Source of the DNA: Pantoea rwandensis
Lineage (GTDB): Bacteria; Pseudomonadota; Gammaproteobacteria; Enterobacterales; Enterobacteriaceae
NCBI RefSeq assembly: GCF_002095475.1
Contig: NZ_MLFR01000006.1
Location: forward strand, 1 to 64,000
Direction of reading: 5' to 3'
DNA length: 64,000 nucleotides
The translations under genes were made by a program, and so were the position numbers. The notes beneath the pieces were generated by a model, which worked only from the letters and a program-made list of their open reading frames with translations, was not told where the DNA came from and ran no database searches. Shown here one piece after another: positions 3,744 through 32,758 of the stretch (positions within the stretch are counted from its first letter, which is position 1; the number at the start of each line of letters is the position of its first letter).

Positions 3744-3936
3744 GCGGTCGGATTTATATTTTTCGCGGGTTGAAGACAGGGCCAAGGGTAAGCTTTACAC
3801 TTGGGTAATAGTCTTAAATTCCGCGGATTAACTCCATCCAGGATAAATCCGCCTGATACTAACTGATATACTCATTTCGTTTTTAAACCGACATATCAAG
3901 TATTAACTTGAACGGCCTATTAAGAGAGGTATTTAG

Positions 3937-27058: not shown

Positions 27059-27376
27059 TTAAACAGGGAAGTGCCTTACCGCTATCAGTTGCTTCTCTTT
27101 GGGCTTTTTAGGCGGCTTTTTTGCCCCGCACAAGGGAATAAGAAGAGGGGGATTGACGGGGGCAACTTTGGCATGCGTTACCTCAGACAAACAATGAGGG
27201 CAGTAGTGAATGTTACTGTATTGCATTAATGAAACGGTTAATGCCTGCGCTGGCGTATAACAGCTTCCAATAAACGTACGAGAATCAGGTCGAGGCAAAT
27301 ACTGACAGCCTTCTTTATGGAGCAGCACAGTTCTCGAAGTATGTTGTGAAATATAATACTTTGTTGATTTATACAT
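27059..27376 (-). CDS. Hypothetical Cys/His-containing small protein
   Basis: A 105-residue open frame not found in the E. coli order. It contains HKEGCQYLP, GSCYTPAQA and HYCPHCLSE, a spacing of Cys and His that suggests a small zinc-binding fold, then a basic proline-rich tail (KKPPKKPKEK). The ATG at 27376 has GGA seven bases upstream; an earlier in-frame start at 27418 lacks one. Function unknown. It follows the next small gene (27448) on the same strand and starts 71 bp after its stop. Confidence 0.6.
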   Translation of the reverse strand: MYKSTKYYISQHTSRTVLLHKEGCQYLPRPDSRTFIGSCYTPAQALTVSLMQYSNIHYCPHCLSEVTHAKVAPVNPPLLIPLCGAKKPPKKPKEKQLIAVRHFPV

Positions 27377-27447
27377 GATATTTCCGTTAGCTGTGTGCGA
27401 GTCCTGAAGGAGACTCAAAGTTTAATGAATGATGCGGCTTACATAAC

Positions 27448-28250: not shown

Positions 28251-28565
28251 TTACTTAATCTGCATGTTGTTGACTACAGATTTCACCCCTTCAACACTGC
28301 GGGTCACCGTTACGGCGCGATTCGCCATCTGCGGTGAGCTGACAAAGCCGCTTAGCTGCACTTTACCTTTGAAGGTTTCTACATTGATCTCGGTCGATTT
28401 CAGCGATTCATCGTGCAATAGCTGAGCCTTAACCTTGGTTGTTATCACCGTATCATCAAGGTAGCCCCCGGTGCCTTCCTGTGTAGCGGTTGGTGCACAG
28501 GCGCTGAGTGTCAGTGCCATAAATGCAGCCATCAAAAATCCTGCAACGACTTTGAAAAGATTCAT
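28251..28565 (-). CDS. BON-domain lipoprotein
   Basis: A 104-residue precursor with a lipoprotein signal (lipobox LSAC, lipidated Cys23) and one BON domain (about 36-104). Typical BON features are DDTVITTKVKAQLL, VETFKGKVQLSGFV and AVTVTRSVEGVKSVVNNM. BON proteins (OsmY, DolP) bind membranes in the periplasm; this short single-domain form is probably anchored in the outer membrane. Its first 42 codons and 141 bp of upstream DNA are duplicated about 4 kb away (32479-32744), marking the edge of an insert. Confidence 0.85.
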   Translation of the reverse strand: MNLFKVVAGFLMAAFMALTLSACAPTATQEGTGGYLDDTVITTKVKAQLLHDESLKSTEINVETFKGKVQLSGFVSSPQMANRAVTVTRSVEGVKSVVNNMQIK

Positions 28566-28706
28566 TGGTTATCTCCCTGTCTTAGATGGTGTTTCACCGC
28601 AACGAGACGGTGCATCTAATTGTGGTCTGGGGTTGGCGAATCAGCAAATCGCGGAGAGTGAAAAAGTTTGAATGGCGTAGGTTTTGCCACTCATTGGGTT
28701 AATACG
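28441..28706. repeat. Left copy of 266-bp direct repeat bounding the insert
   Basis: Aligns without gaps to 32479-32744 (constant offset 4038) with about ten mismatches, roughly 96 percent identity. This copy includes the start of the intact BON gene and its upstream region. The sequence outside both ends differs completely between the copies. Confidence 0.92.
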
Positions 28707-28930
28707 TGCCGTGAATGCAGGGTGGCAGCGTGGCTGGGCGAGAAGGGGGATAATGAATCAAAAATGGCTGGTGAACACTGATGATGCTGATTCTTTAATA
28801 CAGAATGTAGATCATTAAGGTGAGGCGGGTCTTAGATTAATCCACAAGCTTCCAGGGCTCTTACGCTGGAAAGTTGAAATGCCCTGCAGCTCTCTTGACG
28901 AACCACACTCATAGCTACAAGGCATAATGT

Positions 28931-29509
28931 TTAAGGCGTAATGTGTGAGGCTATGTTTTTAGCAACCTGAACCGCAACGTCATCCCATGCACTTTCGAGA
29001 ATACCCGTCTGGCTGGTGCCTCCAATGGTTGGATCCTTTTTATGCGAAGAAAATTGCTGGGTCCAGGTTTTACCATTTAGATTAAACGCTGCATTTAATG
29101 TCACTGTACCGACATCAATCGCAGGAGTGATGTTGAACATACCTGCTGAGTATTCAAAGCCTGAACGTGCTTCAAGCACTGTGATGGTCAAATTCTTGCC
29201 ACCCGCAGTGATGTCTGCATAAGTTGAAATGGCTTCTTCAATTCTCGAAGACAATGCAACACCTGTGGGCAGTCGTGTGCGAGAGCCCCCACCCACGAAA
29301 CCATCAGATCCGTGAATATCGATACGTTGAGGGAAATCAGCTGGATTCCAAACAATAGACAGTTTCGGTCTTTCACCCTGAACCTGAACAGACTTCATAT
29401 CCGTAATAGATGAGTAAGCAAGACGATTATTAAAAGGCAGGCTAATAGCGCAGCCAGATAGCCCAACAGCCACACATGCAACGATGGAGGCCTTGAGAAG
29501 CGTATTCAT
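28931..29509 (-). CDS. Orphan lipoprotein
   Basis: A 192-residue precursor with a textbook lipoprotein signal (MNTLLKASIVACVAVGLSGC, lipidated Cys20). The mature part is rich in beta-strand and polar residues: LSIVWNPADFPQRIDIHG, a Gly-rich GGGSRTRLPTG turn, and NLTITVLEARSGFEYS. The C-terminal region WTQQFSSHKKDPTIGGTSQTG leads to an amphipathic helix. I do not recognise the family. The gene is the first one inside the repeat-bounded insert; base composition is intermediate between the core genome and the AT-rich operon. Confidence 0.7.
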   Translation of the reverse strand: MNTLLKASIVACVAVGLSGCAISLPFNNRLAYSSITDMKSVQVQGERPKLSIVWNPADFPQRIDIHGSDGFVGGGSRTRLPTGVALSSRIEEAISTYADITAGGKNLTITVLEARSGFEYSAGMFNITPAIDVGTVTLNAAFNLNGKTWTQQFSSHKKDPTIGGTSQTGILESAWDDVAVQVAKNIASHITP

Positions 29510-29830
29510 AGGTAGTCCCTTTAGAGAAGTAAAGTGCGTAACTGATTACATTTTATAGTTATTACGCGAGCAGTTTACTCTCTTTGAACCAAATCAGTAC
29601 TACCAAAACTAGTAGTTGTTGATTGGCAAGGTCAGTGTGAGTACTTGGGGTGATTGGAATGTAAGATGAGCCATCACAGTCAACGTCCTAATGTTTTTCC
29701 TGTGGTGAGCAGTATTCAGACTATCAATTACATCAGTAAATGGAGTATTAATGTCAATCATTATTACAATGAATAAATGGGATCATAACATTCATGAATT
29801 CATGAGTGTGATTTTGAAAGTCCATAGAAA

Positions 29831-29956
29831 ATGATAGAAGGGCAATGGCTAGAATTGTCACGACCCGGTGAAGGATTTAATGTGTCAGTAATTGATGATA
29901 TCAAGTTTTTCGTTAAAGGAAAGAATGTATGGGAAGATGCAGTTGGGATTATTTAA
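29831..29956 (+). CDS. Short hypothetical ORF next to holin remnant
   Basis: A 41-residue frame beginning MIEGQWLELSRPGEGF and ending WEDAVGII, followed after one base by AAGGAG. It could be the tail of a larger lost gene upstream of the holin-like sequence. Not recognised; weak evidence of translation. Confidence 0.25.
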   Translation: MIEGQWLELSRPGEGFNVSVIDDIKFFVKGKNVWEDAVGII

Positions 29957-30270
29957 AAGGAGTAGGACATATTTGGATTAGGGACAATCATTGAACTGGT
30001 GAAGACCGCAATTGGGTACTTCACCAAGAAGCAGGAAAGCAAAAAGGAGTTAGATGCGAAGAACTAAGAACAACAGAATGAAATTACACTGAAAAGGCGC
30101 GCAAGGAGTTTGTCTAGCGTCAGGCACTTGGCTATGTACTCACATTCATAATTGCATGGAATTACATTGTGAACCCCATCCTTAGGGTTTGTTTCGGTGT
30201 AGTACTAACGTCAATTCCATTACAGAATGTTTGGAGAGTTTTAATTTGTTTTAATTTGTGGTGGTTGAGT
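29957..30270 (+). pseudogene. Degenerate phage-holin-like remnant
   Basis: AAGGAG (29957-29962) is followed, six bases on, by ATA where a start codon would be expected (29969). The frame reads FGLGTIIELVKTAIGYF then KKQESKKELDAKN and stops at TAA 30065. In a second frame a membrane segment RQALGYVLTFIIAWNYIV leads to NPILRVCF. A short helix, a charged linker, then an Arg/Trp/Pro-containing membrane segment resembles three-helix phage holins. Lost start, stop and frameshift indicate decay. Confidence 0.4.
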
Positions 30271-30295
30271 CATTATTAACTAATATATAGATACT

Positions 30296-31132
30296 TTAAT
30301 CAACCTTGTCTTTTTTCTCGATGATTTTTTCTTTTAAACATAAGCGACAAGGTTCAAAACAAAATTTTTCAAGGAATGACTTTTCGAAACTGAAGTCAGA
30401 TGGACCAAATTTTTTTATTCCATATTGATACAAAGCCTCCATTAATTTAGGTTTCAAATTCTTAAGCCAGTAAGTTAATTCTTCTGAATCATTTTTTAAT
30501 AGTCTCGCTGGCTTGTACCGTTTATTATAAACATCCCTATTATTATTCATGAGGTCAACTGCTTTTTTTGTTAACTCTATAGATTTAGCGTAAACTTCTT
30601 CAACTGAAAGTTCAGAAAATTCATAACGGCCACTATTCACATACTCTAATTTTCTTGGCGGGTTTGCTAAAAAAAACTGAGCAGTTAATTTGTCAATGAA
30701 CTTTGATTCATCTTCCCTAAGTAATTCCTTGTGTTCATTAGCGAATTTTTTTAGCCTAAGAATCTCGCCATCACCACGGAATTTAATCTCTGGTGGGATT
30801 TCAAAGTTTATATAATTATTTTTTAAAGACTCGCAATCTGAATTCTTATGGTATTTTGGCGTTGTGTTGGTATCAAACAATAAATTCATGTTTAAAGATT
30901 TTAATCGAGCTTTCTCGATGAAATCCTCTTTTGACTCATCGAACAGAATTCGCGTCTTCCATAATAACTTTATATCATCATCATTCAATAAGACTCTTAA
31001 TTTTTCATTGCTATAGTATTTCTGGCACAATTCGACTGTTACATCATTTGCTATAACATGAAATTGATAAGTAAGACTTTTAAAGCTACTTAATGTTATG
31101 TGATATTTTTGGGGGTGTATATTACTCATCAT
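30296..31132 (-). CDS. Unknown protein with putative metal-binding clusters (operon gene 4)
   Basis: The last and largest gene (278 residues) of the coupled operon. I do not recognise the family with certainty. Visible features: a segment KYHKNSDCESLKNNYINF followed by EIPPEI (about 93-116), a mixed-charge helical middle (SVEEVYAKSIELTKKAVDLM), a Trp-containing YWLKNLKPKLMEALYQYG, and a C-terminal CFEPCRLC cysteine cluster (C-X3-C-X2-C, about 263-270). The His/Cys pairs could bind zinc. No signal or membrane helix, so cytoplasmic. Very AT-rich. Start overlaps the previous stop by 11 bases; the second ATG (31129) is equally possible. Confidence 0.75.
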   Translation of the reverse strand: MMSNIHPQKYHITLSSFKSLTYQFHVIANDVTVELCQKYYSNEKLRVLLNDDDIKLLWKTRILFDESKEDFIEKARLKSLNMNLLFDTNTTPKYHKNSDCESLKNNYINFEIPPEIKFRGDGEILRLKKFANEHKELLREDESKFIDKLTAQFFLANPPRKLEYVNSGRYEFSELSVEEVYAKSIELTKKAVDLMNNNRDVYNKRYKPARLLKNDSEELTYWLKNLKPKLMEALYQYGIKKFGPSDFSFEKSFLEKFCFEPCRLCLKEKIIEKKDKVD

Positions 31133-31484
31133 TCCGCACCATTAATTTCAATTCTTTCAAGTATGGGTTCCCTTCCAAAAGATCAAACTCTATGATTTCC
31201 TTTTCTAACAAAATGCCTATGGCAGAACCTGAAAGATCAACGTTATTATGAGCTTCAATTGCTTTTTTAATCAATGGAATTGTTTCCTTAGATGATAATA
31301 ATATATTTGCTAGTAGTTCACTAATTTTAGCGTGGAACAAACTTGTTTTATTAGTGCCATAAATCTTGCACATTACATCGATCATTGAGTTTATTTTATT
31401 GCTAGGGCGATAGCTTATTATCGAGTAATGGTCTGTACTACTTTCAACTAAACGTTGGTTTATCACATCAGTAAGTTTTTTCAT
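31122..31484 (-). CDS. Unknown RHH-like protein (operon gene 3)
   Basis: A 120-residue protein starting MKKLTDVINQRL. The segment SYRPSNKINSMIDVMCKIYG then TNKTSLFHAKISELLANI (about 25-62) has the strand-helix-helix pattern of ribbon-helix-helix repressors, but the match is weaker than in gene 2. The C-terminal half (IPLIKKAIEAHNNVDLSGSA) is not recognised. ATG 31484 is chosen over a TTG at 31496: it has GAG seven bases upstream and begins one base after the previous stop. Function unknown. Confidence 0.7.
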   Translation of the reverse strand: MKKLTDVINQRLVESSTDHYSIISYRPSNKINSMIDVMCKIYGTNKTSLFHAKISELLANILLSSKETIPLIKKAIEAHNNVDLSGSAIGILLEKEIIEFDLLEGNPYLKELKLMVRNDE

Positions 31485-31485
31485 T

Positions 31486-31893
31486 TTAGTTCTCAATGGA
31501 TAGTAGTTTAATTAAAGCATCATGCTCATGCGAATGTTGGTCGTAAGGATTTGAATATCTGTCGTTTAAATCACTAATGCTTTTCTCTGTATCGATTTCG
31601 AAAAGCCAACTTTGTGCAGGCTGAAAATTATTTAACTCAGGATTGTTAATGTCAGCTAGCCTAGCAATTATATAGCGTGAGTCAAAGTTCTCAACTTCTT
31701 TATGAATGAAGTTATTAATTGCCTTTTCTATAATGGCATTAACCACTTGAGAGCGAGTCTCATCTAAAATTTTTGAAAGCTCATCAATTACATATAAATC
31801 AATTTTGTTTACTTTAATATTCATTTTTGGTTGGGGATGTTTGGTAACTGAAAGATTACCATCTTGAAAATGATTTTCATTAACTTTAATCAT
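31486..31893 (-). CDS. Ribbon-helix-helix-like regulator (operon gene 2)
   Basis: A 135-residue protein. Residues about 25-58 (KVNKIDLYVIDELSKILDE then TRSQVVNAIIEKAINNF) fit a ribbon-helix-helix DNA-binding domain, with the typical TRS turn before the second helix. The tail is acidic and unmatched, ending QHSHEHDALIKLL. The start overlaps the stop of gene 1 by four bases (ATGA). The best inference is an antitoxin or autorepressor acting on the palindrome and TCATAAA repeats in the operon promoter. Confidence 0.75.
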   Translation of the reverse strand: MIKVNENHFQDGNLSVTKHPQPKMNIKVNKIDLYVIDELSKILDETRSQVVNAIIEKAINNFIHKEVENFDSRYIIARLADINNPELNNFQPAQSWLFEIDTEKSISDLNDRYSNPYDQHSHEHDALIKLLSIEN

Positions 31894-32168
31894 TGTATTC
31901 TACCTTTTTTATTAAAGCTATCATTGAAGTAAGTAGTAATCAGTGTATTTTCAGATTCCACAAGAGTTACCCCACCTCTATTTTTGATTCTTTCAAGCTG
32001 CTTTTTAATTTCAGAAATTGAGATCATCATCATTTCAATGGTTTTTTTGTCAAGAATGATTTTGTCACCATCTTTACTTTCAGAACCAAAATGAAGAACC
32101 ATATCAATCATAGACTTATTAATACATCTTTCATTCATACGTTTATATGCATGCCGTGAAATATTCAT
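31890..32168 (-). CDS. DUF4258-like small protein (operon gene 1)
   Basis: A 92-residue protein opening SRHAYKRMNERCINKSMIDMV, the HAxxRMxER pattern typical of DUF4258-like proteins, then FGSESKDGDKIILDKK and a strand ending NTLITTYF. DUF4258-like proteins often occur in toxin-antitoxin-like and mobile loci and have been likened to small RNases, which is family context rather than proof. AAGGGAG lies six bases before the ATG, the best ribosome-binding site in the operon. First gene after the promoter at 32195-32223. Confidence 0.72.
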   Translation of the reverse strand: MNISRHAYKRMNERCINKSMIDMVLHFGSESKDGDKIILDKKTIEMMMISISEIKKQLERIKNRGGVTLVESENTLITTYFNDSFNKKGRIQ

Positions 32169-32194
32169 TGATGTCTCCCTTAAGTGTTGGACTA

Positions 32195-32223
32195 ATCATA
32201 AAGTCATAAATCGAACATTGCAA
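32195..32223 (-). promoter_or_regulatory. Promoter of the four-gene operon
   Basis: Minus strand TTGCAA (32218-32223), 17-base spacer, TATGAT (32195-32200): a good sigma-70 promoter placing the start of transcription about 20 bases before gene 1. Confidence 0.72.
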
Positions 32224-32242
32224 TAGTCATAAAATGACTATT
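32196..32242. promoter_or_regulatory. Operator-like palindrome and TCATAAA repeats
   Basis: AATAGTCAT-AAA-ATGACTATT is a perfect palindrome with 9-base arms at 32222-32242, abutting the -35 box. TCATAAA recurs at 32196-32202, 32204-32210 and 32227-32233, covering the -10 and spacer. This is the layout of an autoregulated ribbon-helix-helix operator. Confidence 0.65.
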
Positions 32243-32315
32243 TTAGTGAATATTGCTTAACCTATTGAATTTTAAGTTTTAATTTGTCGTAAGATTTAAA
32301 TGGTTTAACAGTTGA

Positions 32316-32459
<144 letters not shown>

Positions 32460-32478
32460 TGATTGTTAAACGTTACTG

Positions 32479-32603
32479 GTTATCACCGTATCATCAATGT
32501 ATCCCCCGGAGCCTTCCTATGCAGCAGTTGGTGCACAGGCGCTGAGTGTCAGTGCCATAAATGCAGCCATCAAAAATCCTGCAACGACTTTGAAAAGATT
32601 CAT
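32479..32603 (-). pseudogene. Truncated BON lipoprotein gene fragment
   Basis: Begins with the same start codon, signal peptide and LSAC lipobox as the intact gene at 28251-28565, but reads APTAA then TAG: a stop codon five residues past the lipidated Cys. The remaining homology ends at 32479 and no BON domain is left. It could at most encode a lipoprotein signal peptide. Confidence 0.85.
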
Positions 32604-32744
32604 TGGTTATCTCCCTGTCTTAGATGTTGTTTCACCGCAACGAGACGGTGCATCTAATTGTGGTCTGGGGTTGGCGAATCAGCAAATCGCGGAGTGTGAA
32701 AAAGTTTGAATGGCGTAAGTTTTGCCACTCATTCGGTTAATACG
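32479..32744. repeat. Right copy of 266-bp direct repeat bounding the insert
   Basis: Gap-free match to 28441-28706. It contains only the first part of the BON gene plus its upstream region, and runs up to the 3' side of the trp operon. Confidence 0.92.
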
Positions 32745-32758
32745 AGGAGGGGATGCAA

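What the first reader, a model, noticed from the sequence alone, without database searches (positions are those of the whole stretch)
30296..32168. Four-gene AT-rich coupled operon of unknown function: candidate new TA/defence-type system
Four genes on the minus strand overlap or nearly touch (ATGA overlap, 1-base gap, 11-base overlap) behind a single good promoter. The products are a DUF4258-like protein, a ribbon-helix-helix-like protein, a second weaker RHH-like protein, and a 278-residue protein with YHKNSDCESL and C-X3-C-X2-C clusters. Two RHH-like proteins with a DUF4258-like protein and a putative metal-binding protein is not an arrangement I recognise. Small RNase-like plus RHH partners suggests a multi-part toxin-antitoxin or phage-defence module, but that is inference.
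Basis: partly seen in the sequence, partly recalled or inferred. Interest (0 to 1): 0.85.

Follow-up and report, generated by a model that had tools for sequence, protein, structure and literature searches.

The report
Four-gene mobile toxin-antitoxin-like cassette
Four small genes sit side by side in the same order on the chromosomes of four related bacteria and, neatly enclosed by recombination sites, on three Acinetobacter plasmids; together they likely act as a toxin-antitoxin system that would carry an extra, predicted metal-binding partner of an undescribed family.

Summary
In detail: four coupled minus-strand genes (A 31890-32168, B 31486-31893, C 31122-31484, D 30296-31132; 31% GC in a 50% GC window). 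A passes the DUF4258 cut-off; D matches no family in four libraries. The order A-B-C-D recurs in three other genomes at two other chromosomal sites and on three Acinetobacter plasmids, where two oppositely oriented Xer (pdif) sites enclose just these genes. B and D occur in the same 4 of 197 genomes, the window's own included. Two relatives lack the insertion below trpA. An AGTCA/TGACT operator-like array keeps its spacing between window and Acinetobacter but is absent in two cassettes. D relatives also occur without A-B-C, and one A-B-C-like operon has another fourth gene. Best reading: a type II toxin-antitoxin-like module with a DUF4258 toxin, two ribbon-helix-helix-like partners and an exchangeable zinc-site component. 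Toxicity, neutralisation, zinc binding and phage defence are untested; neither the RHH folds nor a RelE-type fold of A could be confirmed.

The parts
31890..32168 (-). gene A, 92 aa, DUF4258 protein; predicted RelE/ParE-superfamily-type toxin; H6, R10, M11, R14, G28, G66, T78 conserved
   Evidence: Pfam PF14076 E 1.6e-6, 28.8 bits over cut-off 25; invariant in 8 rows; in 24 rows M11, R14, G28, G66, T78 invariant, H6 and R10 at 90% or more; AF2 mean pLDDT 91
31486..31893 (-). gene B, 135 aa; RHH-like strand-helix-helix pattern at residues ~20-64, predicted antitoxin/repressor
   Evidence: present in 7 cassettes; no RHH profile above cut-off, RHH_1 12.8 bits vs 20.5 in the L033 relative
31122..31484 (-). 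gene C, 120 aa; second RHH-like pattern, predicted partner of B
   Evidence: present in 7 cassettes; fold not confirmed
30296..31132 (-). gene D, 278 aa; undescribed family with invariant H-X4-C and C-X2-C (candidate zinc site)
   Evidence: no family match; AF2 mean pLDDT 63, no convincing PDB fold match
32195..32223 (-). promoter-like TTGCAA-17-TATGAT of the operon
32190..32242 (-). operator-like array: palindrome AATAGTCAT-TTT-ATGACTATT (32222-32242) plus GACT/AGTC words at -71, -60, -37, -25 from the A start codon
   Evidence: same GACT-N19-GACT-N8-AGTC spacing upstream of A on the Acinetobacter plasmids
28720..32468 (.). inserted DNA (approximate limits) that carries the operon and one predicted lipoprotein gene; absent at this site from the two relatives examined
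   Evidence: (G049, G018)
28431..28719 (.). left copy of a 289-nt direct repeat (start of the BON-domain lipoprotein gene)
   Evidence: BON PF04972
32469..32757 (.). right copy of the repeat (truncated BON lipoprotein gene), 93% identical

Best explanation
The four genes are one conserved unit that likely works as a type II toxin-antitoxin-like module: A is the predicted RNase-like toxin, B and C would bind and silence it and repress the promoter, and D would be an added zinc-site partner that ties release of the toxin to a trigger. Shown here: the unit is kept in order in 7 cassettes, is framed as a single Xer (dif) module on three plasmids, is an insertion that two relatives of the window lack, and has a promoter array of GACT/AGTC half-sites whose spacing is shared by the window and the Acinetobacter plasmids. 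Inferred from family knowledge: A acts like other RelE-superfamily toxins (the conserved H-x3-R-M-x2-R helix and the late T are its probable active side); B and/or C bind the array as RHH dimers, alone or with A. Inferred and weakest: D. Its invariant residues look structural (metal ligands, Asn, aromatics) with no obvious catalytic set, it occurs beside unrelated genes (RelB/RelE, S1 domains, a 489-aa gene that looks nuclease-like by eye), and an A-B-C-like operon exists with another fourth gene; I therefore take D as an exchangeable sensor or adaptor rather than the toxin.
For: Operon conserved: G074, G034, G006; three Acinetobacter plasmids. In one search profiles of A, B, C and D all matched in 7 of 29 sources (three of the 29 are second fetches of the same place); C matched in no other, B in one other at E 4e-4; the B and C profiles were built from six of those seven, so the absence elsewhere is the informative part. 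Co-occurrence: D (alignment A4, which already held a G034-type row) in 4 of 197 and B (window protein alone) in 4 of 197 genomes, the same four, own genome included; A in 7 of 197 including these four. Unit borders: pdif sites 3856-3879(+)/5952-5975(-) in L033, 1063-1086(+)/3167-3190(-) in L034, 33823-33846(+)/35927-35950(-) in L061, with 0/1, 0/3 and 1/0 mismatches; 0.01-0.10 sites expected per source. Most r3-T5 plasmids of Acinetobacter carry a dif module with TA genes (PMC13141974, passages). A: PF14076 above cut-off; DUF4258 is listed among BECR-fold type II toxin families and called undescribed (PMC11980606, passages). Operator: GACT/AGTC 4 in the window (0 of 1000 shuffles), 3 in G074 (16 of 1000), 4-5 on the plasmids (0 of 1000); GACT-N19-GACT-N8-AGTC in the window and three plasmids, reached by 0, 0, 0 and 1 of 20000 shuffles, once in the 64 kb window. 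D lies 20 bases behind a RelB (PF04221) and ParE-type toxin (PF05016) pair in Pseudomonas.
Against: No toxicity or neutralisation data. Foldseek and VIA-align gave no RelE-type match of weight for the confident A model (one RelE-family chain, 3oei_N, at E 5.7), and PF14076 scores fall below cut-off in the Acinetobacter and G006 copies (18.8 and 13.9 bits). H6 and R10 of A are not fully invariant in the wider 24-row set. RHH folds of B and C rest on pattern only. The G034/G006 cassettes have no GACT/AGTC word upstream. A relatives also occur outside such cassettes, beside genes that by eye are a vWA/PP2C/kinase set or a methylase-like protein, so DUF4258 need not mean TA. D is the only annotated gene on a 2.6 kb plasmid, which fits a D with an activity of its own. 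PMC11980606 lists DUF4258 with antitoxin first, here A comes first (PMC10790755 reports partners strictly downstream in E. coli, passages).
Confidence: 0.55

Rival explanations
1. D is the effector (toxin or anti-phage protein) and A-B-C form its control and neutralising part.
For: D is the largest product and last in the operon; its family occurs as the only annotated gene on a small plasmid, fused to S1 RNA-binding domains, and behind other genes, which suggests an activity of its own.
Against: Invariant residues of D are H94, C99, F152, N165, F258, C261, C264 besides M1 and T12, which read as a metal site and core rather than a catalytic set; D follows a complete RelB/RelE-type pair in Pseudomonas; an A-B-C-like operon has another fourth gene.
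Confidence: 0.22
2. The operon is an anti-phage system in which D senses a phage product and releases A, as loss of the chaperone does in HigBAC-type systems. (Compatible with the best explanation; its odds overlap with it.)
For: Third-component logic (HigBAC, PMC11980606 passages); AT-rich acquired islet; plasmid copies near HaeII R-M and viperin genes.
Against: No convincing PADLOC match for the four proteins; no defence gene noticed by eye beside the chromosomal copies, neighbours not scanned; no match of A or D in phage records. Only three plasmid neighbourhoods seen.
Confidence: 0.3
3. The operon is a plasmid/islet stabilisation or purely regulatory cassette with an inactive DUF4258 protein.
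For: A scores weakly against PF14076 in some members; no RelE fold match; carriage in dif modules.
Against: R14 and T78 are invariant in 24 rows and H6 and R10 kept in 90% or more, in 8 of 8 rows, not expected of a decayed enzyme.
Confidence: 0.15
4. Chance neighbours: four unrelated small genes in an AT-rich insertion.
For: None beyond the lack of known families for three of the four.
Against: Same order in 7 cassettes, co-occurrence in the same 4 of 197 genomes, module borders on plasmids.
Confidence: 0.01

Closest known systems
BrnTA (type II TA; BrnT PF04365 with RHH antitoxin BrnA)
   Same: toxin gene first, RHH-type antitoxin second, autorepressed operon; plasmid records whose matches to the ends of the Acinetobacter cassette span annotated brnT/brnA genes, which suggests sister dif modules
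   Different: A is DUF4258 and has no BrnT match; the RHH-like part is near the N-terminus of B, while BrnA's is C-terminal (PMC11980606 passages); two extra genes C and D
HigBAC and other toxin-antitoxin-chaperone (TAC) modules
   Same: RelE-superfamily-type toxin, antitoxin and an added third component in one operon
   Different: D shows no SecB or any other Pfam match at E<=1; four genes, two RHH-like proteins
DUF4258 (PF14076) toxins of the RelE/ParE superfamily
   Same: A belongs by score; family listed as uncharacterised TA toxins
   Different: the partner named in the passages read is MqsA (fusions), not two RHH-like proteins plus D
Acinetobacter dif modules carrying TA pairs (higBA, abkBA; PMC13141974 passages)
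   Same: three plasmid copies of this cassette are framed by two pdif sites in opposite orientation
   Different: four genes instead of a pair; the window has no dif-like site

Membership tests
DUF4258 (PF14076) | whole-protein score over Pfam's gathering score, profile covered end to end | tested here: met
   gene A 28.8 bits vs 25, profile 1-70 of 71; below cut-off in two cassette relatives tested
DUF4258 (PF14076) | BECR (RelE-type) fold | tested here: inconclusive
Ribbon-helix-helix (Pfam RHH_1 and kin) for B and C | score over a curated RHH cut-off | tested here: not met
   no RHH model over cut-off for B or C of the window, G074, G006 or L033; RHH_1 12.8 bits vs 20.5 for L033 B
Ribbon-helix-helix (Pfam RHH_1 and kin) for B and C | dimeric strand-helix-helix fold | tested here: inconclusive
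   pattern visible by eye; PDB profile searches found no RHH chain; no structure predicted for B or C
BrnTA | BrnT toxin (PF04365) | tested here: not met
   no match for A at E<=1
BrnTA | toxin gene first, antitoxin second | tested here: met
   A precedes B with a 4-base overlap, if A is the toxin
TAC (HigBAC type) | SecB-like chaperone as third component | tested here: not met
   no Pfam family for D at E<=1
Type II toxin-antitoxin system | toxin stops growth, antitoxin protein binds and neutralises it | not testable with these tools
   needs expression assays
Type II toxin-antitoxin system | promoter with operator for the antitoxin | tested here: inconclusive
   array with shared spacing in the window and three plasmids, related half-sites in G074, absent in G034/G006; binding not tested
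Acinetobacter dif module | two oppositely oriented pdif sites around the genes | tested here: met
   L033, L034, L061, 3 of 3 plasmids
Acinetobacter dif module | same, for the window copy | tested here: not met
   no dif-like site in the window at up to 3 mismatches
Known anti-phage defence systems (PADLOC) | match to a PADLOC model | tested here: not met
   only HamA at E 0.01, 13.5 bits, for C; none at E<=1 for A, B, D

The most novel reading that the evidence does not exclude
A new class of modular toxin-antitoxin system: a DUF4258 RNase held by a pair of RHH proteins acting as a heteromer on a conserved operator, with an exchangeable fourth slot; here the slot is filled by a new zinc-dependent sensor family (D) that plugs into several unrelated toxins (RelE, DUF4258, S1-fused proteins) and tells them when to fire.
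Probability: 0.3. Interest if true: 0.8.

Novelty: new variant of a known kind. Interest (0 to 1): 0.62.

Why it matters
DUF4258 is listed with about 6000 members among RelE-superfamily toxins and as undescribed (PMC11980606 passages); this cassette gives it a defined genetic unit whose borders are set by dif sites, and a predicted operator. D matches no family in Pfam, NCBIfam or PADLOC and turns up beside different genes, once behind a RelB/RelE-type pair, so it could be a general third component that links toxins to triggers. Both points become testable with one plasmid and four genes.

Tried and rejected
Near DNA relatives: no blastn match of the cassette in E. coli genomes or plasmids. 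D in phage records and viral contigs, A in phage records and viral contigs: nothing. Genome-contig scans gave no locus with single D and one Flavobacterium locus with the alignment. D in 369 genomes drawn from the class and 378 from the phylum: only the window's own genome in each, so the family is rare in such draws; in the genus 3 of 61. PDB profile searches: D none; A, B, C only unrelated chains at E 0.023 or worse; trimmed B and C likewise, 0.52 or worse. Fold searches: D model (pLDDT 63) and A model (pLDDT 91) gave no convincing match; a missing match is no proof of a new fold. B and C as paralogues: hhalign E 0.079, not supported; B against an annotated RHH protein of L034: E 0.18. The lipoprotein at 28931-29509, which I first took for DUF4410 from recall, has no Pfam match above cut-off. 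A resemblance of D's YH-X4-C ... GF-x-PC-x2-C to the Ada-type zinc module is recalled by me and supported by no call. Literature: DUF4258 in 8 papers, 6 with toxin-antitoxin; no paper holds the plasmid names or protein accessions tried; of 94 papers the 15 listed do not fit by title and start of abstract; one search gave one paper, not opened; of 61 papers the 8 listed were seen as a listing only. Five papers were seen as passages, none read whole. I make no wider claim that the cassette is unpublished.

Full report
What is there. On the minus strand, directly below trpA (PF00290), four ORFs run A (92 aa), B (135), C (120), D (278), coupled by a 4-base overlap, a 1-base gap and an 11-base overlap. 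Their GC is 30.9% in a window of 49.9%. A passes the cut-off of DUF4258; B, C and D match no family above a curated cut-off in Pfam or NCBIfam and nothing of weight in PADLOC or PHROGs.

The insertion. Two genomes of the same genus, G049 and G018, run from trpA into the BON-domain lipoprotein gene; the window carries about 3.7 kb extra (28720-32468) between two 93% identical copies of a 289-nt piece of that gene, both of which match the same stretch of G049 and of G018. The insertion holds the operon and one predicted lipoprotein gene without a Pfam family. The two copies differ by about as much as window and G049 do (91-95% identity), so I infer that one copy came in with the imported DNA. 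No dif-like site was found in the window.

The cassette elsewhere. Among 197 genomes (the window's own included) D was found in 4 (3 with the window protein alone) and B in 4, the same four: G000, G074, G034 and G006. A was found in 7 of 197, these four included. C was not searched genome-wide; in the fetched loci it stands between B and D in each cassette. The order A-B-C-D is kept in G074, G034 and G006; G034 and G006 share one site by their neighbours, G074 has another, the window a third. D identity to the window is 57% for G074 and 15-21% for the G006/G034 type, depending on the alignment. Protein names point to Musicola paradisiaca for the G074 copy and Pantoea sp. App145 for the G034 type; no call names the window's species. 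Equal contig lengths suggest three further metagenomic contigs with both A and D (P0035/P0002 3659, P0025/P0012 2339, P0030/P0013 5942).

Acinetobacter plasmids. A tblastn search with an A relative (P0036) found three Acinetobacter plasmids, and each carries A-B-C-D of 91, 145, 112-113 and 273 aa. D there keeps H-X4-C, N-S and C-X2-C. Each set lies between two oppositely oriented pdif sites with no other annotated gene inside, 3 of 3; one of the six sites (L034, 3167-3190) has 3 mismatches, the others 0 or 1 (0.01 to 0.10 sites expected per source). Further sites on these plasmids belong to neighbouring modules. Most r3-T5 plasmids of this genus carry a dif module with TA genes (PMC13141974, passages). 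D of the other two plasmids is 95% and 90% identical to that of L035, so I count this as one acquisition seen three times rather than three independent ones.

Control of the operon. Upstream of A the window has a 9-bp perfect palindrome (reached by 11 of 500 shuffles) and four GACT/AGTC words in 110 bases (0 of 1000 shuffles); G074 has three (16 of 1000), the plasmids four or five (0 of 1000); G034 and G006 have none. AGTCA/TGACT was the most shared 5-mer that is not A/T only among window, G074 and L033. The spacing GACT-N19-GACT-N8-AGTC is the same in the window and on the plasmids (0, 0, 0 and 1 of 20000 shuffles) and occurs once in the window. The spacing was chosen after seeing it in the data, so the shuffle counts overstate the surprise; that window and Acinetobacter share it is what counts. 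For A and C the Acinetobacter copies are also closer to the window than G006 is (49 vs 32% and 33 vs 24%), for B they are not (25 vs 31%).

Gene A. AF2 gives a confident model (pLDDT 91), two short helices, a long helix and a strand pair; no solved structure matches well. H6, R10, M11, R14, G28, G66 and T78 are invariant over 8 rows, two of them from outside such cassettes; in the 24-row set H6 and R10 are kept in 90% or more. DUF4258 is listed among BECR-fold TA toxin families without description (PMC11980606, passages).

Gene D. Relatives were found in further settings: 20 bases behind a RelB and ParE-type pair on Pseudomonas plasmid pA6H2, as the only annotated gene of a 2.6 kb Enterobacter plasmid and on a Raoultella relative, at the end of an S1-domain protein in Hymenobacter, in Dyadobacter and Parabacteroides plasmid records, and in Flavobacterium, in two frames, overlapping a 489-aa gene of no Pfam family. 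Over 14 rows the invariant residues are M1, T12, H94, C99, F152, N165, F258, C261, C264 (numbering of P0001, which starts one residue after the 278-aa ORF). I read H94, C99, C261 and C264 as one zinc site; this is inference.

An A-B-C-like operon without D. In G751 an A relative is followed, each with a 4-base overlap, by a 154-aa protein that resembles B over the RHH-like part (hhalign E 4.5e-5, probability 69%; B profile E 4e-4), a 120-aa protein that weakly resembles C (E 0.0052, probability 7%; not found by the C profile at E<=0.1), and then an 85-aa gene; the D profile finds nothing there. With one example this is a lead: A-B-C is the core and the fourth place is exchangeable.

Where A occurs without the cassette. 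In 315 genomes drawn from the order 13 had an A-type gene; of the loci read, some lie beside genes that by eye are a vWA/PP2C/kinase set (L031) or a methylase-like 556-575 aa protein (L030, L078) (no family scan made of those neighbours). DUF4258 alone therefore does not make a TA system.

Verdict. A real, conserved, horizontally spread four-gene unit, most likely a TA-type module with an unusual composition.

Noticed in passing
28431-28719 and 32469-32757: The insertion below trpA is flanked by 93% identical copies of the start of a BON-domain lipoprotein gene; the right copy is truncated. Suggests integration by recombination with imported homologous DNA.
   Followed up: partly
27059-27418 (-): 119-aa ORF with an H-x4-C ... 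C-x2-C pattern (LHKEGC ... CPHC) and no Pfam match, near the insertion; ligand spacing similar to D, no relation shown.
   Followed up: partly
L061 31370-31720: A second DUF4258-type gene (A profile E 3e-18; PF14076 18.3 bits, below cut-off) beside an LRAT-family and a viperin-family gene on Acinetobacter plasmid pTT1-3-2, in the stretch next to the cassette.
   Followed up: partly
L030 6041-8036; L078 2222-4175: DUF4258-type gene directly before a 556-575 aa protein that by eye is methylase-like, in two genomes of one family, once beside a gene that by eye is DUF262-like; a possible separate DUF4258 arrangement.
   Followed up: no
L008 8247-10616: Flavobacterium: D-type gene in two frames overlapping by 4 bases the end of a 489-aa gene that by eye has a nuclease-like E-F-K stretch; no Pfam match for the latter.
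   Followed up: partly
L077 2784-4124: A-B-C-like operon with 4-base overlaps and a different fourth gene (85 aa) in G751.
   Followed up: partly
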